DNA of 45,977 nt from a virus. The DNA lies in IMG/VR virus record IMGVR_UViG_3300023083_000006, positions 1-45,977 of that record. The stretch is one strand, 5' to 3'. The translations under genes were made by a program, and so were the position numbers. This document shows, piece by piece, positions 2,697 through 9,906 of this stretch. The notes beneath the pieces were generated by a model. The model was not told the DNA's origin, ran no database searches, and worked only from the letters and a program-made list of their open reading frames with translations. How positions within the stretch are numbered: position 1 is the first letter of the stretch; the number at the start of each line of letters is the position of its first letter.

Positions 2697-2977
2697 GATT
2701 TAATTCCCCTGGTCAGATCGTGGCATCGCTCGCCCTGGTCGGCGTAGCAGCGACCGCAAGCGCCATCCGAGCGAACGATATTTGTTTCGTCACGGCAGGG
2801 CGGCCTATCATCGACTCCCGCCTTGGCTTCCTCACGGTTCAGCCTGGCGACCAGGACGCCCGCGCATCGAGCGCAGAATTTCCCGTGCGTCGCGTTCACG
2901 CGGTTGAAGACCTCGCAGACGGCCAGCTTGCCGCATCGGTCGACGGCGCATTTTCCGAAGTCTCGAAAATAGGCCAT
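2693..2977 (-). CDS. Small zinc-finger protein A
   Basis: A 94-residue Cys-rich protein. The N-terminal unit has C-x4-C (KCAVDRC) followed after about 20 residues by GKFC-x2-C, a four-ligand zinc site; a second Cys cluster (CGRCYADQGERCH) lies near the C-terminus. The first unit resembles the product of the adjacent upstream gene (KLGKCFHDGC...GKFC-x2-H), so the two look like tandem paralogues. Role unknown; such modules bind DNA or protein. Confidence 0.7.
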   Translation of the reverse strand: MAYFRDFGKCAVDRCGKLAVCEVFNRVNATHGKFCARCAGVLVARLNREEAKAGVDDRPPCRDETNIVRSDGACGRCYADQGERCHDLTRGIKS

Positions 2978-2980
2978 CGC

Positions 2981-3421
2981 TCAGACCTCCCCATCTGAGA
3001 ACGCCTGTTTATCGCGGCACAGTTCGCCACAGAAAAAATAGCCGTTCTGATTTTCGAGCCAGCCGATTCCGCGAACCTCGCCCTCGGCGACGTGAAGGCT
3101 CTGCGCCTCGAGCTCGATCGTCTCGCCGCACCATTTGCAGGTGCACGTCCCGATCCACTGAAATTGCGGCTTGCCGTTCGGCCCCGAAAAAACGCCCGTA
3201 CAGCCCTTTTCCGCGTCGCCCGCTACCTGGGTAGCAGGAGGGTCTCTTTCCTGCCCTCCTGAATTTTCCTGGGCCGCCTGAGGCCATCCATTTTTCAGAG
3301 GGGATGGCGGGACGTGATCCCAGCAGAATTTTCCGGTGCGGTATCCGTTTTCGTCGAACGTGTTGACCATGGCGTCGGCGCTGCACCCGTCGTGGAAACA
3401 TTTTCCCAATTTAGCGAACAT
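2981..3421 (-). CDS. Small zinc-finger protein B
   Basis: A 146-residue protein with an N-terminal C-x4-C...GKFC-x2-H unit like its neighbour, then a Pro/Gly-rich linker, then a second Cys cluster (CTCKWCGE near residue 95) and a C-terminal FFCGELC. It probably holds two zinc-binding domains. The ATG at 3421 follows a strong GGAGG and an AATTAATTCG spacer that overlaps the end of the replication gene. Function unknown; the setting suggests a DNA transaction role. Confidence 0.7.
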   Translation of the reverse strand: MFAKLGKCFHDGCSADAMVNTFDENGYRTGKFCWDHVPPSPLKNGWPQAAQENSGGQERDPPATQVAGDAEKGCTGVFSGPNGKPQFQWIGTCTCKWCGETIELEAQSLHVAEGEVRGIGWLENQNGYFFCGELCRDKQAFSDGEV

Positions 3422-3425
3422 CGAA

Positions 3426-4277
3426 TTAATTCCTCCGCTCGTTTGCGATCCGCTCGCAGACGGACACGAAATAGGGCTTGGCGGCCCGGGGGTTTGCTCG
3501 CCAGACGATGACGGCGGCCTTGGCGAGGTCGTCGGCGTCCAGGTCGTGTTTTTTCGACATTTCGCCGATGACGGTCCCGGCGGCCTTGGCGTCCATGCCG
3601 TTGACGACCAGGGCGCCCCGGATCATCCCCCAGACCTCGGCCCGGCGAATTTCGGCCGGCAGGGCGTAGGCTGGGTTTCGATTATCGCCGGACTCCTCGG
3701 CCTCGAGGCATTCGCGCAGGGTCAGCGGTATTTTCTCGCCGGCCTTGGGTCCGACCGTAATTTCCGCCACTCGAACGATAATCGAATCCACGGTTTGGCG
3801 GCCGTTCGCCAATGGGGGTTTGGGGGATTCTTCTAGCTTCTGGACTCTGGCTTCTGGTATCTGGGTCTTAACCCCCCCGGTTAACTCCGGCTTATCCGAC
3901 CCGGAATTTCCCTTGTCTTTTGAAAGCAATGGAGAGCCGCCCTTCTTTCCGTTTTCTCGATTAATTCTCCGCTTTTTCTCGTCAGATTCCATCCGCGAGC
4001 TGTAGATCACCCCGTTCTTTTTCTTCTTGGCGACCTCGGATTCGAGGAGCTCGTCGAGGGCTGGAATTATTTCCTCGCGGTCGGATCCGATGATTTTTCC
4101 GAGGCTCTCGATCGTCATCGCCTGGCCCTTTTTATCGACCAGATGGCCGTAGGGTTCGGCCTCATGCATGATCGAAATTAAATCGATCCAGAGGCCGCGG
4201 GCGGCGAGCGAGACGTCGCGAAGGGCGGTGTTGGCGCGCCAATCGGCGGCATAGAATTTCATCCACGGATCGCTCAT
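3426..4277 (-). CDS. Phage replication organizer / initiator-like protein
   Basis: A 283-residue protein whose first 100 residues match the winged-helix N-terminal domain of phage replisome organizers (DUF1376-like): WMKFYAADWRANTALRDVS, then a second segment on early and late helices ending in GVIYSSRM. A Lys/Arg/Gly-rich linker (GKKGG) and a helical C-terminal domain follow. Such proteins bind the origin or load the DnaB-type helicase, which is encoded in the same operon. The ATG at 4277 is chosen over upstream starts because the reading before it is low complexity and overlaps the next gene; ATGA coupling supports it. Confidence 0.7.
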   Translation of the reverse strand: MSDPWMKFYAADWRANTALRDVSLAARGLWIDLISIMHEAEPYGHLVDKKGQAMTIESLGKIIGSDREEIIPALDELLESEVAKKKKNGVIYSSRMESDEKKRRINRENGKKGGSPLLSKDKGNSGSDKPELTGGVKTQIPEARVQKLEESPKPPLANGRQTVDSIIVRVAEITVGPKAGEKIPLTLRECLEAEESGDNRNPAYALPAEIRRAEVWGMIRGALVVNGMDAKAAGTVIGEMSKKHDLDADDLAKAAVIVWRANPRAAKPYFVSVCERIANERRN

Positions 4278-4546
4278 AGGCCCGTAGCCCTCCGAATAGC
4301 CGATCGGATCACGCACCGGCCAGCAGCGGCCATGATGCGTTCCCCGCGCCTGGTGGTCGCCAACCATGATTTTTTGTCGCTCATGATCCAGCCGCGGCGC
4401 TTGCAAGCGGCCTTGGCCTTCCGATGGCGGGTTCGAGCCGCCAGAGAGACAAGCCGGTAATGGTCCTTGCAGAGCCACCAGGCCCAGGACCCGCGACAGC
4501 TTTTGGTGCAGAACGGGACCTCGCAGCGGGTGCGCTCGTCGGTCAT
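4274..4546 (-). CDS. Small basic zinc-finger protein C
   Basis: A 90-residue very basic protein. Near the N-terminus it has C-x4-C (RCEVPFC) followed by WLCKDHY, giving C-x4-C...C-x2-H, the same general plan as the two zinc-finger genes downstream. The rest is Arg/Lys-rich helix, suitable for nucleic acid binding. The start at 4546 is set by ATGA overlap with the upstream gene. Function unknown. Confidence 0.65.
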   Translation of the reverse strand: MTDERTRCEVPFCTKSCRGSWAWWLCKDHYRLVSLAARTRHRKAKAACKRRGWIMSDKKSWLATTRRGERIMAAAGRCVIRSAIRRATGL

Positions 4547-5317: not shown

Positions 5318-5518
5318 TTAATCCGCCTCGTCGAACCGGCGCAGGGGCGAATATTCGGGCGAGCGGGCCGGCGCAGGGGCGCCTTGGCTGGCGTAGTAGG
5401 CCCCGCCGACCGTCTTCCGGCCCCGGTTCATGTAGGCGACGACCTGGATCGCCGCCGCCTCTACCCGGCGCCGAAGGTCCGGGTCATCGATCCGGGAGCG
5501 GGTGACATCGTGGGTCAT
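5318..5518 (-). CDS. Hypothetical protein, 66 residues
   Basis: Small basic protein with a helical first half and a Pro/Ala-rich C-terminal half. It starts at ATG 5518, overlapping the cytosine methyltransferase stop by ATGA. No recognised family or function. Confidence 0.6.
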   Translation of the reverse strand: MTHDVTRSRIDDPDLRRRVEAAAIQVVAYMNRGRKTVGGAYYASQGAPAPARSPEYSPLRRFDEAD

Positions 5519-6924
5519 GGCTCCTCGCCTCCCATCATCCGAACAAGTCGCGCTGCACCGGCGGAGCCTCGCGCGGCAAGCCGAGTCGCATTAACTCGGA
5601 TCGCATACGCGCCCGCCAGCGGATAAACGCCGTTTCCGAGCATGCGAAGTTCGTCCACCCGGGCGGCCACCCCATCAACCATTCGACGAACCGCGGGTTC
5701 AAGCTCCGGCGCTCTGGCGAGGACGTCGGCCCATCCGGCGACGTCGGCGGGTCCAGGCGGGTGCAGACGTCGCGGGCCTGGCCGGTCAGCAGCAATTCGT
5801 CGCTCCGAGGTCCCCCACGGTTCGCTTGCCCCCCCGATGCGCAGCTCACTTGCGGGGTTTCCCAATGGTTCACCTCGTGGTGCAGACTGATCCCCTTGCG
5901 GAAGCCGTTCGCGCCCGAGTCGATCGTCATTTGACGAAGCGCTACCCCGTCCCTCTCCGAGTCCATGACTGCAGGAGTCGGCCACACCTCCCCGGCAGGG
6001 AACGGCCGGGGAGGTGTGGCCGACTTGCTGAACTCCGCCGCCTGGGTCGGCAACGGAACCCCGCCGCCGCCGAACGCCATGTTCGGCCCGCCCTTCTCCC
6101 CGTCCGTTGAGCGCGGAGTCGACCTGGTCGACTCCGCGCTCATGGCCTTCGCCGCCGCCGGAAGAGAGGGGTTGCTCGGCCCCCGGCTGAAACAGTTCGG
6201 CGCCTTGTCCCCGTCCGTCGCGTTCGGGGTCGGCCAGGCCGCCGGCTTCGGCTGCTGAAATTGTTGCACCTGAACCCCCAAAGGAGTTCCCATGCCGTTT
6301 CCGTTGATCCCCTTTGCTATGACCTCCTGGCGCCTCGCCTCGAATTTGGCCGGGTCGTGTGTCAGGCCGAAAACGCCCGCGTCCGGGGTCGACCACCCCG
6401 AGGATAAAAACCCGCTGGCGTTCGTGCGTCGCGCCGACCTCATCCGCGCGGAAGAGTCCGCCCTCAACCTGGAAACCCAGGCGGTGTAAGTCTCGGCGGA
6501 CTCGCTGCGCTCCCGGAACGAGGCCGGGCTTCGCCGAGAGCATGCCGGGAACGTTCTCGATGAGGACGAACCAAGGCCGGGCCTGGACGATGATGCGTCG
6601 GGCGTCGGACCAGAGGTCGCGCTCGTCATCGGATCCCTCGCGCTTTCCGGCGAGGCTATGCGGCTGGCAAGGGATTCCGCCAATGACGCCATCCACAAGG
6701 CCGCGCCATGGGCGGCCGTTGAAGGTGGTAACATCGCCCCAGATAGGAGCGGGAGCCAGGAGACCCTGTTCCATCGCGTCGACCAGGTGCGCGCAGGCGA
6801 AAGACTCCCTCTCCACGAAACAGACTGCTCGAGCGCTTGGAATTGCGAGATCGAGGGCGAGGTCAAGCCCGCCGCCTCCCGCGCAGAGGCTGATAGTGGT
6901 GATTGGCCCGGAACGTAGATCCAT
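5515..6924 (-). CDS. C5-cytosine DNA methyltransferase (Dcm type)
   Basis: Transfers methyl groups from SAM to C5 of cytosine in DNA, probably protecting phage DNA from restriction. Seen in order (ATG start): SAM-binding motif I near residue 15 (SLCAGGGGLDL), motif IV with the catalytic Cys at residue 86 (IPCQPHSLAG), the ENV motif at 123-125 (IENVPGM), motif VIII (ATHERQRVFILG), a long Gly-rich target-recognition region with repeated [LV]ADP/ADS units, and motif X near the C-terminus (RMLGNGVYPLAGAYA). A TTG at 6933 is an alternative start. From about motif VIII to the stop, the same DNA is also open in another frame with protein-like sequence and better GC3 (see the overlapping entry), so the true product may be shorter or frameshifted. 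Confidence 0.88.
   Translation of the reverse strand: MDLRSGPITTISLCAGGGGLDLALDLAIPSARAVCFVERESFACAHLVDAMEQGLLAPAPIWGDVTTFNGRPWRGLVDGVIGGIPCQPHSLAGKREGSDDERDLWSDARRIIVQARPWFVLIENVPGMLSAKPGLVPGAQRVRRDLHRLGFQVEGGLFRADEVGATHERQRVFILGVVDPGRGRFRPDTRPGQIRGEAPGGHSKGDQRKRHGNSFGGSGATISAAEAGGLADPERDGRGQGAELFQPGAEQPLSSGGGEGHERGVDQVDSALNGRGEGRAEHGVRRRRGSVADPGGGVQQVGHTSPAVPCRGGVADSCSHGLGEGRGSASSNDDRLGRERLPQGDQSAPRGEPLGNPASELRIGGASEPWGTSERRIAADRPGPRRLHPPGPADVAGWADVLARAPELEPAVRRMVDGVAARVDELRMLGNGVYPLAGAYAIRVNATRLAARGSAGAARLVRMMGGEEP
5535..6443 (-). CDS. Overlapping W-x-T-P repeat protein inside the methyltransferase
   Basis: A second open frame, +1 relative to the methyltransferase, runs across its variable region and C-terminus. 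It holds four W-x-T-P units (GWSTPDAG, AWPTPNATDG, VWPTPAVMDS, HWETPQVS), an INGNGMGTPLGV segment, and a C-terminus with LNPRFVEWLMGWPPGWT followed by an R-W-R-x-R-M-R-S-E-L helix. From memory, phage proteins with W-[PA]-T-P repeats and an L-N-P-x-[FWH]-x-x-W-L-M-G-x-P ending are common and often labelled DNA methyltransferase. GC3 is higher here than in the methyltransferase frame: 18 of 20 codons against 12 of 20 over 5641-5700. ATG 6443 is a candidate start, ATG 6293 another; a frameshift from the methyltransferase is also possible. Function unknown. Confidence 0.55.
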   Translation of the reverse strand: MRSARRTNASGFLSSGWSTPDAGVFGLTHDPAKFEARRQEVIAKGINGNGMGTPLGVQVQQFQQPKPAAWPTPNATDGDKAPNCFSRGPSNPSLPAAAKAMSAESTRSTPRSTDGEKGGPNMAFGGGGVPLPTQAAEFSKSATPPRPFPAGEVWPTPAVMDSERDGVALRQMTIDSGANGFRKGISLHHEVNHWETPQVSCASGGQANRGGPRSDELLLTGQARDVCTRLDPPTSPDGPTSSPERRSLNPRFVEWLMGWPPGWTNFACSETAFIRWRARMRSELMRLGLPREAPPVQRDLFG

Positions 6925-6925
6925 G

Positions 6926-8548
6926 TCACTCAAATTCCCCTATGTCATAGGCCGAAAGCGGCGGCTCTTCTGGCCCGTCGGCGGGCGGTGTTGAGCCTTC
7001 GCTCGAATAGGTGGTTTCCGTGGCGGGAGAAGGGTTTGCGGCCGGTGCTGAGAGCCCGTAGCTCGCCGCCGTCTCCTCGAACTGGTGAGCCCAGAGCCCG
7101 CCCCCGAACACGTTGTCGGGCTGGCGATCGCGCACGGCGTTGCGGGCGATATCGACCCAAAGTTCCTTGGTCCCGCCCTCGCCCTCGCGGATTTTGCCGA
7201 TGATGACCTCGAGCACCTTGGACGCCTTTCTGGACTCCCAGAACTGGACTTGGTCGGCGCGCTTGGGCGTGGTCTCGCGGATCGCGTAATAGGCATCGCG
7301 GTAGAAGAACAGGGCGCCGTCGGCGTTCTCTTCCCAGGCGCCGGAGTCGCGCAGGTCGGGCAGGCTGGGCCGCTTGTCGTCGCGCTTCTCGACCTCCCGG
7401 TTCAGCTGGACCAGGGCCAGGATGGGAATTCCGAGTTCGCCGGCCAGTTCCTTAAGGCCGATGGCGATCATCGTTTGCGCCTCGGTGCGTTGGTGGCGCG
7501 GATCATCGGGGCGCATGAGTCCGACGTGGTCGACGATGAGCAGGCCGGGAGCGATGCCCTGGCGATGCCACGCGGCGACCTGGCGGCGCATGAGGGAGCG
7601 GAGACGCGAGAGCGTGATCCCCGTGACCTTGATCACCTGGAGCTGGTCTTTCAGCGCGGCGACCTGGCGGGCGGCCTCGTGGAAACACGCACGCTCGACA
7701 TTGGTCACGTTGCGCTTGCGGAGCTTCGCATAGGACGGGGCGTCGCGCGGGGCGAGCTCGAACGCCAGGTCGGACGTATATCGGCGCATCATCGCCGACA
7801 CGCCCATTTCGCCGTTCACGGTAGCGACGCCCAAGGGCCGGCCGTCGGCGTGCTTGCCGTGGCGCGCGATGTTCAGCGCCACAGACGAGGCGAACGCCGA
7901 CTTTCCCATCCCGGGCCGGCCGGCGCCGAGCCAGAGTTCGCCCGGCATGAGGCCGCCGATCTCGCTGTCCAGGGTATCGAGGCCGAAGATCACGCCCGAT
8001 GCGACGGCCGGGTTATCGAACTCGTCGATCATCTGGCCGACAGCCGTCTCGGCGTTCACGAACCCGGCGGCGCGGCCCTTCATCTGAATCGCCAGGAGGT
8101 CGCGTTCGGCGTGCTCCAGGATCTCCGCCGGCCGGATCTCGCCGCTCATGGCGAACTTCTCGATCTCCTCGGCCGTGCGCAGAAGCTGGCGGCGCTGGCT
8201 GAACTCCCGGACGATCTCGGCATAGGTCGACCCGTTGTAGCCGGGCGGGGCCCGCTCTGTCAGGTCGGCCAGGTAGCGGACGCCTCCGAGCTCATCGAGG
8301 CCCTTGTCGGCGCCCAGGCGGTCGGCGACGGTCATCGCGTCGGCCCGGCCGCCCATGCTCACCAGGGCGGATATCGCGGCGAAGATTCGCCCATGCGTCG
8401 GGTCATAGAACGACTCCAGCGTGACGATCCCGTCAATGTCGGCCAGGTGCGCGGACTCGAACAGGAGCACGCCCAGGAGGCTCTGCTCGGCCTCGAGGTT
8501 GTGTGGCTGCGTCCGCCCGGTCGGGTAGAGGATGGAGTCGCGGGCCAT
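6926..8548 (-). CDS. dnaB: Replicative DNA helicase, DnaB family
   Basis: Hexameric 5'-3' helicase of the phage replisome. Residues 14-115 form the DnaB N-terminal domain (QPHNLEAEQSLLGVLL). The RecA-like motor follows, with Walker A at about 208-218 (GAGRPGMGKSAF), Walker B in LLIVDHVGLM, and the classic helicase stretch ALVQLNREVEKRDDKRPSL followed by DLRDSGAWEENADG. At 540 residues it is somewhat longer than usual because of a Pro/Ser-rich tail after about residue 485. No separate primase was found; the replication-organizer-like protein in this operon may recruit it. Its stop overlaps the start region of the cytosine methyltransferase. Confidence 0.95.
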   Translation of the reverse strand: MARDSILYPTGRTQPHNLEAEQSLLGVLLFESAHLADIDGIVTLESFYDPTHGRIFAAISALVSMGGRADAMTVADRLGADKGLDELGGVRYLADLTERAPPGYNGSTYAEIVREFSQRRQLLRTAEEIEKFAMSGEIRPAEILEHAERDLLAIQMKGRAAGFVNAETAVGQMIDEFDNPAVASGVIFGLDTLDSEIGGLMPGELWLGAGRPGMGKSAFASSVALNIARHGKHADGRPLGVATVNGEMGVSAMMRRYTSDLAFELAPRDAPSYAKLRKRNVTNVERACFHEAARQVAALKDQLQVIKVTGITLSRLRSLMRRQVAAWHRQGIAPGLLIVDHVGLMRPDDPRHQRTEAQTMIAIGLKELAGELGIPILALVQLNREVEKRDDKRPSLPDLRDSGAWEENADGALFFYRDAYYAIRETTPKRADQVQFWESRKASKVLEVIIGKIREGEGGTKELWVDIARNAVRDRQPDNVFGGGLWAHQFEETAASYGLSAPAANPSPATETTYSSEGSTPPADGPEEPPLSAYDIGEFE

Positions 8549-9906
8549 TAATCAGCCTCTCCGAACAGGGGCCCGGCCGCCTGTTGCGGCTTCTGTTTCT
8601 TTTCCTGCGCCGCGAGTCGGCCCTCGCCGCGGTAGAACGCAAGCTTGCGGTGAATGTCGGCCACATACTGCGGCTCCCGCTCGATCAGGATGGCCCGGAA
8701 GCCCTCGAGCATGGCCGCGACGCCCGTCGACCCGGATCCGGCGAACGGGTCCAGGACCAGCCCCCCGGGCGGCGTCACAAGCCGGCAGAGGTAGCGCATG
8801 AGGTCAACCGGCTTGACCGTCGGGTGCTTGGACCCTAGGCGGTCGTCGGCATCGGCCTTGGCGCTGTAGAAAAACCGGGCGGCGGAACCGCTGTCGCCGT
8901 GGAAAACTCCAGGAACCCTTTTTTTTGTGCCGTAGACGTCCGAGCCATGGACGGCGCTCGGTTCGTTTCCAGACACCCGGGCGAACGCACCAGCCTCGGG
9001 CGGAAACGCCGCGACGACCTCGTCGCTCTCGTCGTGGATCACGTTGGCGGGGAAGCGACCTGCAGGATTCAGGGTTTCCGCTTCAATCCTGCACCCGTCG
9101 ATATTGATCGCCCCCGTCCCGTGCGTGAGCACGTTCGCGGCGACGGTCCCGATCAGCGGCTTGCGGGCCATGATGATGGGCTCGAGGGCAGGCTTTAGGG
9201 CGGTTCCCCAGCCTGACCAAGCCGCCGAGGCCGCCGAGGCCGGAGCGGTGATCTCGCTAAACCGCTCCTGCTTGAATTCTCCGAGCGCGCCATAGGTCTG
9301 GGCGCCACTGTCGCCCTTATTGTTTTGCTTAAGCCCGATGACCTTGCGGGCCGCTCCGGCGGCGCGATCGATCCCCTTGCTCACGTCGTGCGACTTCGGA
9401 AACCCGGTCCCGAAGATCCACGCGAGCTCGCCGCCGAACGTCGACTCCTCGATGCAGCGGAGAAACGCGCCCTGCTGCTCATGGGTTAGCGAGTTCATGA
9501 ACGCGGCGACGTGCGTGTCGCACGCGATCAATTCGACGATGCGGTCGCGGATCTCAAAGCCCGCCCCCTCGATCGCCGTCGCCAGCTGGTGCACTGCGCG
9601 GCCGGCGCCGAACGCCAGGACGTGGCCGCCGGGCTTGAGGACGCGATAGACCTGTTCCCAGAAATCGACCGCGAACGCCGTCTCGCCGGTGTCCCAGGCC
9701 TGGCCCATGAACCCGGCCGAGGCGCGGGCGTATGCCTCGTTCCCCTTGGCGGGCGCGGAGTTGGCTGATCCGAACCGCTTCACGATCGAGACCAGTGCAT
9801 AGGGCGGATCGCAGACGACCGAGTCGACAGAGTTGTCGGCCAGGGTCTTAAGCACGTCGCGGCTATCGCCGTGGTGGACGGTTACAGGAGACCGACGACG
9901 GCTCAT
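8548..9906 (-). CDS. DNA methyltransferase, DPPY/beta-class (adenine-N6 type)
   Basis: SAM-dependent methylation of an exocyclic amino group, most likely adenine N6. The catalytic motif IV DPPY is at residues 33-36, and SAM-binding motif I FAGSGSTGVAA is near residue 388, so the order IV then I places it in the beta class with CcrM. A long central part (KPGGHVLAFGAGRAVHQL; HPTVKPVDLMRYL just before motif I) is typical of phage site-specific methylases. The specificity cannot be read from sequence. The ATG overlaps the stop of the GcrA-like gene by ATGA, so the two are probably translated together. Confidence 0.93.
   Translation of the reverse strand: MSRRRSPVTVHHGDSRDVLKTLADNSVDSVVCDPPYALVSIVKRFGSANSAPAKGNEAYARASAGFMGQAWDTGETAFAVDFWEQVYRVLKPGGHVLAFGAGRAVHQLATAIEGAGFEIRDRIVELIACDTHVAAFMNSLTHEQQGAFLRCIEESTFGGELAWIFGTGFPKSHDVSKGIDRAAGAARKVIGLKQNNKGDSGAQTYGALGEFKQERFSEITAPASAASAAWSGWGTALKPALEPIIMARKPLIGTVAANVLTHGTGAINIDGCRIEAETLNPAGRFPANVIHDESDEVVAAFPPEAGAFARVSGNEPSAVHGSDVYGTKKRVPGVFHGDSGSAARFFYSAKADADDRLGSKHPTVKPVDLMRYLCRLVTPPGGLVLDPFAGSGSTGVAAMLEGFRAILIEREPQYVADIHRKLAFYRGEGRLAAQEKKQKPQQAAGPLFGEAD

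What the first reader, a model, noticed from the sequence alone, without database searches (positions are those of the whole stretch)
5535..6443. Second coding frame hidden inside the cytosine methyltransferase
Two protein-like sequences share about 900 bases. The methyltransferase frame needs this DNA for its target-recognition region and motif X (LGNGVYP). The other frame has four W-x-T-P repeats, an INGNG segment and a LNPRFVEWLMGWPPGWT ending. The units interlock: DNA such as tggccgacccc reads W-P-T-P in one frame and [LV]-A-D-P in the other. GC3 strongly favours the second frame in the middle and at the end (18 of 20 against 12 of 20 codons over 5641-5700), while the first frame is favoured in the catalytic half. 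Either the methyltransferase overlaps a second gene or a frameshift joins the catalytic half to the repeat domain.
Basis: partly seen in the sequence, partly recalled or inferred. Interest (0 to 1): 0.75.

Follow-up and report, generated by a model that had tools for sequence, protein, structure and literature searches.

The report
Methyltransferase gene with second protein inside
This phage DNA reads as two different proteins at once along almost the whole length of a DNA-methylating enzyme gene, and the second protein most likely supplies the part of the enzyme that chooses which DNA site to mark; the same double use of one gene is found in hundreds of diverse phages and is mostly missed by genome annotation.

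Summary
On the minus strand, F1 (5515-6933, C5-cytosine methyltransferase) is overlapped over about 1.39 kb by F2 (5535-6929), shifted by +1. About 220 related loci from phages, prophages and metagenome bins keep the same +1 pair. Substitutions switch frame where function does: F1 is constrained over motifs I-VIII and at motif X, F2 over the WxTP array and a motif-IX-like segment between them. F2 has no stop in the WxTP part in any locus set tested, including loci fetched with F1 alone (0 observed, 62 expected). In 72 loci the two start codons lie 4 nt apart (NTGANTG). Some loci have an F1 middle full of stops and an intact F2. A Gordonia phage enzyme carries catalytic domain, LLPTP repeats, IX and X in one frame. 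So F2 is most likely the target-recognition and motif-IX chain of a two-polypeptide C5 methyltransferase, and the F1 middle a linker. The closest precedent is M.EcoHK31I. The WxTP modules (median 37 aa, 1-7 per locus, shuffled between loci) look like tandem target-recognition domains. New variant of a known kind; no experiment, and no confident structure of the WxTP array.

The parts
5515..6933 (-). F1: C5-cytosine DNA methyltransferase frame (alpha-like chain), 472 aa from TTG 6933; an ATG at 6924 is an alternative start
   Evidence: ORF; PF00145 8.2e-28 over residues 12-180; phrog_363 2.3e-47
5535..6929 (-). F2: overlapping +1 frame (beta-like chain), 464 aa from GTG 6929, which overlaps the stop of the helicase gene
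   Evidence: ORF; phrog_27243 1.6e-25 and phrog_1008 7.9e-13; conserved start and N-terminus in relatives
6927..6933 (-). Dual start TTGAGTG: F1 TTG and F2 GTG 4 nt apart behind AGGGGAA
   Evidence: Sequence; NTGAATG or NTGAGTG geometry in 72 loci
6400..6891 (-). F1 catalytic half: motif I 6862-6891, IV (PCQ) 6646-6678, VI (ENV) 6550-6570, VIII 6400-6426
   Evidence: substitutions fastest at F1 third positions in relatives
5703..6399 (-). F2 WxTP module array (target-recognition part); in F1 a poorly conserved linker. Modules begin at 6395, 6236, 5984 and 5864; GINGNGMG 6288-6311
   Evidence: Substitutions fastest at F2 third positions; no F2 stops in relatives; shuffled modules
5652..5702 (-). 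F2 motif-IX-like segment LNPRFVEWLMGWPPGWT
   Evidence: Nearly invariant in 50 relatives; in the place of motif IX in single-frame relatives
5620..5643 (-). F1 motif X MLGNGVYP, inside the F2 C-terminal stretch
   Evidence: F1 codon pattern returns here.047/.016/.258
5538..5642 (-). F2 C-terminal stretch CSETAFIRWRARMRSELMRLGLPREAPPVQRDLFG, opposite F1 motif X and the F1 C-terminus
   Evidence: Conserved in the F2 alignment; helices in a low-confidence model

Best explanation
The locus encodes a two-chain C5-cytosine DNA methyltransferase from two fully overlapping genes in +1 frame relation. F1 (alpha-like) carries motifs I-VIII and motif X; its middle is a long, poorly conserved linker. F2 (beta-like) starts 4 nt downstream of F1 behind the same ribosome-binding region. 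The C-terminal half of F2 supplies in trans what F1 lacks: a string of WxTP modules acting as target-recognition domains, and the motif IX segment LNPxFVEWLMGWPxGW. The F2 N-terminal half, opposite the catalytic motifs, is also kept open and under some constraint; its role is unknown. The two chains are proposed to co-assemble and methylate several short DNA targets, plausibly to protect phage DNA from restriction. Shown by sequence: both frames conserved, selection switching frame with function, conserved starts, natural single-frame and split relatives. Inferred: that both proteins are made, their assembly, WxTP modules being the TRDs, multispecificity, biological role.
For: Same +1 pair in 92 IMG/VR loci and two Synechococcus phages and in 63/78 loci fetched with an F1 query only. 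Substitution pattern switches from F1 to F2 after motif VIII and back at motif X. F2 stops 0 against 62, 87 and 68 expected in the WxTP part of three sets; F1 stops there 0 against 205 in the Shelly set. Fourfold F1 sites fixed where F2 dictates them. Dual start. Loci with broken F1 middle and intact F2. Stultus gp4 has catalytic part, LLPTP, IX and X in one frame; Mordred has them split into gp80 and gp81. Model of a single-frame relative is confident at IX and X and matches M.HhaI and M.HaeIII. Precedent M.EcoHK31I: I-VIII and X in one chain, IX in the other (PMC3404938).
Against: No protein or activity data. The WxTP array is not confidently modelled, alone or in the single-frame relative. 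PMC3404938 places the predicted TRD of M.EcoHK31I in the large subunit, not the small one. In some actinophage relatives F1 alone has LLPTP, IX and X and an F2 ORF with LLPTP still exists, so the F2 role there is unclear. Locus pairs are not phylogenetically independent.
Confidence: 0.72

Rival explanations
1. One polypeptide made by programmed frameshifting: F1 catalytic half, +1 shift into F2 for the WxTP array and motif IX, possibly a shift back for motif X.
For: Selection is on F1, then F2, then F1 along the DNA; single-frame relatives have all parts in one chain.
Against: F2 is also kept open in the catalytic part (1 stop against 138 expected) and has its own conserved start. F1 is kept open through the WxTP part (0 against 205). 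Motifs IX and X sit in different frames in different relatives. No common slippery site was identified, though none was searched for systematically.
Confidence: 0.12
2. F2 is an independent phage protein with another job, such as a regulator or an anti-restriction factor, overprinted on a self-sufficient methyltransferase.
For: F2 has no Pfam match. Its N-terminal half is constrained too. F2 ORFs also lie opposite apparently complete actinophage enzymes.
Against: F1 has no conserved TRD or motif IX of its own. The same LLPTP, IX and X order occurs fused to the catalytic domain in Stultus and split off in Mordred. F2 survives where the F1 middle is broken.
Confidence: 0.11
3. F2 is a shadow frame, open by chance in GC-rich DNA.
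For: High GC makes long spurious frames likely; in the window alone P of no F2 stop is 0.03. tblastn similarity of F2 over the catalytic half would follow from F1 conservation alone.
Against: F2 is the conserved frame where F1 is not. It is open at GC 0.44-0.48. It is intact where F1 is broken, and F2-dictated synonymous sites are fixed.
Confidence: 0.03

Closest known systems
M.EcoHK31I (YGGCCR), two-polypeptide C5 methyltransferase (Lee 1995, as cited in PMC3404938)
   Same: One chain with motifs I-VIII and X, motif IX in a second chain. From memory, its beta gene also lies in an alternative frame within alpha; not verified here.
   Different: Here the second frame spans the whole gene, starts 4 nt after the first and carries a WxTP module array; PMC3404938 places the predicted TRD of M.EcoHK31I in the large chain. 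No sequence comparison was possible.
M.AquI, split C5 methyltransferase (PMC3404938)
   Same: Catalytic and TRD parts on two polypeptides.
   Different: The small chain holds IX and X together; Arthrobacter phage Mordred gp80/gp81 looks like this, the window does not.
Multispecific Bacillus phage C5 methyltransferases such as SPR (cited in PMC8936443)
   Same: A string of target-recognising modules between motifs VIII and IX; module length about 40 aa there (from memory), median 37 aa here.
   Different: Single frame and single chain; no WxTP repeats known to me.
phrog_1008 and phrog_27243 (PHROGs)
   Same: These families match F2 of the window and of eight other phages.
   Different: Filed as 'DNA methyltransferase' and 'unknown function'; their overlap with the catalytic frame is not recorded there.
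Gordonia phage Stultus gp4
   Same: Catalytic domain, LLPTP repeats, motif IX-like segment and motif X.
   Different: All in one frame.
Paenibacillus phage Shelly SHELLY_55/56
   Same: Methyltransferase with an annotated internal gene in +1 that carries WxTP and IX.
   Different: The internal gene starts well inside the catalytic part; the annotators gave it no function.
ShiLan domain with hidden HNH endonuclease (PMC11855218)
   Same: Out-of-frame ORF inside a phage methylase gene.
   Different: A mobile insertion encoding a nuclease; here the hidden frame is proposed to be the enzyme's own missing half.

Membership tests
C5-cytosine DNA methyltransferase (PF00145), F1 | Profile match to the catalytic domain | tested here: met
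   8.2e-28, residues 12-180
C5-cytosine DNA methyltransferase (PF00145), F1 | Motifs I, IV (PCQ), VI (ENV), VIII and X present | tested here: met
   Coordinates
C5-cytosine DNA methyltransferase, complete single chain | TRD and motif IX in the same chain as the catalytic motifs | tested here: not met
   No classical motif IX in F1 in the survey; the IX-like segment is in +1; the F1 middle is not conserved
Two-polypeptide C5 methyltransferase of M.EcoHK31I type | Large chain with I-VIII and X, motif IX on the second chain | tested here: met
   definition from PMC3404938. IX assignment is by position, motif likeness and single-frame relatives
Two-polypeptide C5 methyltransferase of M.EcoHK31I type | Both chains needed for activity | not testable with these tools
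   Needs expression
Two-polypeptide C5 methyltransferase of M.EcoHK31I type | Sequence homology to M.EcoHK31I alpha and beta | not tested
   Its sequence was not at hand; the original paper is not held
M.AquI-type split | Motifs IX and X together on the small chain | tested here: not met
   Motif X is in F1, IX in F2; met in Mordred gp81
Multispecific phage C5 methyltransferase | Several short modules in tandem between motifs VIII and IX | tested here: met
   796 modules in 215 loci, median 37 aa, 1-7 per locus, four in the window
Multispecific phage C5 methyltransferase | Each module specifies a different DNA target | not testable with these tools
   Needs methylation mapping of module swaps
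phrog_1008 / phrog_27243 (F2) | Profile match | tested here: met
   7.9e-13 and 1.6e-25; F2 of eight other phages

The most novel reading that the evidence does not exclude
A very widespread class of phage C5 methyltransferases stores its exchangeable target-recognition modules in a frame that overlaps the catalytic chain, so that module shuffling has to preserve two proteins at once. This would be one of the longest and most widely conserved same-strand dual-coding arrangements in DNA phages, in which the two subunits of a heterodimer are encoded by the same base pairs.
Probability: 0.6. Interest if true: 0.82.

Novelty: new variant of a known kind. Interest (0 to 1): 0.72.

Why it matters
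Overlapping genes over more than a kilobase with selection demonstrable in both frames are rare outside small viruses (my knowledge). Here one dual-coded enzyme recurs in phages of Alpha- and Gammaproteobacteria, Firmicutes, Actinobacteria and cyanobacteria, and in genome bins assigned to archaea, and the frame under selection switches sharply along the gene. It explains why databases hold separate families of 'DNA methyltransferase' and unknown proteins for the same DNA, and why near-identical phage records annotate different frames. It implies that such methyltransferases tested as single proteins may lack a subunit. It makes two questions directly testable: what the overlap buys (fixed stoichiometry, co-translational assembly, linked inheritance of two subunits), and whether WxTP modules set phage methylation specificity.

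Tried and rejected
Shadow ORF: rejected by codon-position substitutions, stop counts in F1-fetched and low-GC loci, fixed fourfold sites and loci with broken F1. Folding the F2 C-terminal half alone: low confidence, not used for fold search. F2 profile against PDB sequences: no hit. M.EcoHK31I and M.AquI papers: not held. Paracoccus prophage m5C enzymes with relaxed specificity (PMC3925955, PMC5537653): described as about 700 aa, probably another family, not pursued. F2 against plasmids: one hit, Roseicitreum antarcticum, not followed. Full-text searches for a description of this overlap found none, but only open-licence papers are covered. An early script printed F1 in place of F2 for loci whose F2 covers all of F1; corrected.

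Full report
What is there. On the minus strand of this 46-kb tailed-phage genome, directly behind a dnaB-type helicase gene (6926-8548), two long frames share the same DNA. F1 (5515-6933, 472 aa) has motifs I, IV, VI, VIII and X of C5-cytosine methyltransferases and matches PF00145 over residues 12-180. F2 (5535-6929, 464 aa) is shifted by +1: its first codon base is F1's second, its second is F1's third, its third is F1's next first. F2 has no Pfam or NCBIfam match but matches phrog_27243 and phrog_1008. The overlap is about 1.39 kb, not 0.9 kb.

Relatives. tblastn with either frame leads to the same kind of locus. In 92 IMG/VR loci and two Synechococcus phages both frames are found, with the same +1 offset. 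Two near-identical Synechococcus phage records annotate opposite frames: Ssp-JY39 gives F2 as hypothetical protein, Yong-M2-251 gives F1 as methyltransferase. An automatic survey placed the LNPxFVEWLMG segment in +1 relative to the catalytic frame in 75/77 loci fetched with F2, 12/12 fetched with the window F1, 67/70 from bacterial and archaeal genomes, and 63/78 fetched with the F1 of Paenibacillus phage Shelly, a search that did not use F2 at all. Genomes and bins include Rhizobium, Brucella endophytica, Paracoccus, Sphingomonas, Myxococcus, a Chloroflexi bin and Poseidoniaceae bins. Phages of Salmonella, Acinetobacter, Pseudomonas, Microcystis, Acidovorax and Arthrobacter show the same +1 pair or a variant of it.

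Which frame is selected where. Over 93 locus pairs, substitutions in the catalytic part fall mostly at F1 third positions (rates .124/.062/.242 for F1 positions 1/2/3). After motif VIII they fall mostly at F1 first positions, which are F2 third positions (.176/.061/.133). In 20-codon bins the switch occurs within about 20 codons of motif VIII, reaching .40/.10/.07, and the F1 pattern returns at motif X (.047/.016/.258). Pairs with alignable flanks show the same: L067/L073 .124/.013/.013 in the WxTP part against a flank third-position rate of .240; L064/L074 .217/.038/.032, in loci whose F1 is broken there. In the catalytic half F1 third positions diverge far less than third positions of flanking genes in many pairs (.081 vs .240.063 vs .311.039 vs .179.022 vs .238.120 vs .355), which suggests constraint on the F2 N-terminal half as well; some pairs do not show it, and recombination between flanks and gene may confuse single pairs. 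Fourfold-degenerate F1 sites are fixed where F2 dictates them (A165 G 87/87, A421 T 76/76, A425 C 80/80, G423 G 80/81, L465 T 58/58) and free elsewhere (at G24 the commonest base has 34%).

Stops. Synonymous shuffles of F1 predict a mean of 3.9 F2 stops per locus within the stretch that is in fact open, with P<0.05 in 82 of 91 loci. By part: 1 against 138 expected in the catalytic part and 0 against 88 in the WxTP part. In the F1-fetched Shelly set F2 starts internally and has stops upstream (179 of 259 expected), but none in the WxTP part (0 of 62); conversely F1 has none there given the F2 protein (0 of 205). So both frames are kept open through the overlap. C75C1-type phages at GC 0.44-0.48 keep 303-489-codon overlaps free of F2 stops against 7.6-10.8 expected. 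Caveat: the loci are related, so these sums are not independent trials.

Starts. In 72 loci the F1 start (ATG, GTG, TTG, rarely CTG) and the F2 start lie 4 nt apart (NTGAATG or NTGAGTG), and F2 begins M-x-W[LI][YF]xP or M-W[LI][YF]xP. The window has TTGAGTG with VTWIYVP. This argues for independent initiation on both frames behind one ribosome-binding region. Other clades start F2 differently, the Shelly clade inside the catalytic part.

What F2 is. In Gordonia phage Stultus gp4 one frame runs catalytic domain, LLPTP repeats, LNAAFAEWMMMLPAGW, AIGNGVCP. In Arthrobacter phage Mordred the catalytic part (gp80) and LLPTP + IX + X (gp81) are separate, slightly overlapping genes. In L130-L134 (L133 aside, also L130, L131, L132, L134) F1 has catalytic part, IX and X while about four LLPTP repeats are in +1. 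The segment LNxxFxEWLMGWPxGW therefore occupies the place of motif IX; in the HMMER alignment to M.HhaI it falls on RKLHPRECARVMGYPDSY, although with no significance of its own. An AlphaFold model of the natural single-frame relative L128 (mean pLDDT 74, pTM 0.76) is confident over most of the catalytic part, IX and X, and matches M.HhaI and M.HaeIII (E about 5e-15), while its LLPTP module is not resolved. The F2 C-terminal half by itself is not confidently folded except for moderately confident last helices. In L064, L071, L074, L075, L183, L184 and L187 the F1 middle has 4-14 stops while F2 is intact; in the four of these that were read or aligned (L064, L071, L074, L075) the F1 motif X segment is still conserved, and in the three read in full (L064, L071, L075) it lies beyond the last stop as a small separate ORF. 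The F1 middle is thus dispensable as protein in those loci and F2 is what is kept.

Modules. Cutting F2 at WxTP gives 796 modules in 215 loci, median 37 aa, 1-7 per locus. Near-identical modules recur at different positions in different phages. This resembles the tandem target-recognising domains of multispecific Bacillus phage methyltransferases (cited in PMC8936443), which leads me to read the array as several TRDs. That is inference.

Conclusion. The best reading is a heterodimeric C5 methyltransferase whose chains are encoded by fully overlapping genes: F1 = I-VIII + linker + X, F2 = N-terminal part of unknown role + WxTP TRDs + IX. The arrangement of motifs is that of M.EcoHK31I, where the large subunit has I-VIII and X and the small one IX (PMC3404938); my memory that the M.EcoHK31I beta gene also lies in an alternative frame was not verified. 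Programmed frameshifting is the main rival but does not explain the conserved F2 start, the open F2 N-terminal half or the open F1 middle. I found no paper describing this overlap in the open literature searched. The nearest, PMC11855218, describes hidden HNH endonucleases in methylase insertions, which is a different thing.

Noticed in passing
L064, L074, L075 (F1 2772-3395, F2 2836-4362), L071; also L183, L184, L187: F1 has 4-14 stops in its middle while F2 is intact; in L064, L071 and L075 the motif X segment survives as a small separate ORF in the F1 frame, which would make a three-piece methyltransferase.
   Followed up: partly
L113 and L114, +1 ORF ending at 2338: A +1 frame opposite an insertion in Gordonia phage methyltransferases reads VAGLIDGEGCVHL, like a LAGLIDADG homing endonuclease hidden out of frame; compare the hidden HNH of PMC11855218.
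   Followed up: no
L093 and L094: Two Synechococcus phage records with identical DNA here annotate opposite frames of the same gene: F2 as hypothetical protein, F1 as methyltransferase.
   Followed up: yes
PHROGs phrog_1008 and phrog_27243: phrog_1008 is named 'DNA methyltransferase' although it matches the non-catalytic F2 frame; phrog_27243 of unknown function matches F2 too.
   Followed up: partly
L117, L120, L126, L128, L129, L136 (+1 ORFs): Opposite actinophage methyltransferases that already have IX and X in frame there is still a +1 ORF with a conserved W-rich start (WNPxxxLWETxQxDLFSExxEPYSETWPTSGMTRNG) and LLPTP; its role is unclear.
   Followed up: no
L211, L217: The NTGAATG dual-start pair also occurs in contigs binned as Candidatus Poseidoniaceae archaea; it may be a virus of theirs or a binning error.
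   Followed up: no
window 8548-9906 (-): A second DNA methyltransferase gene (DPPYAL motif, amino-methyltransferase type by eye) lies directly upstream of the helicase gene, so the phage carries two methyltransferases around dnaB.
   Followed up: no
NZ_CP090448.1 1254489-1255210 and NZ_CM129871.1 2951116-2951592: A few E. coli chromosomes carry a close relative of the Salmonella phage S9-5 pair; RefSeq annotates only the methyltransferase frame under the match.
   Followed up: no
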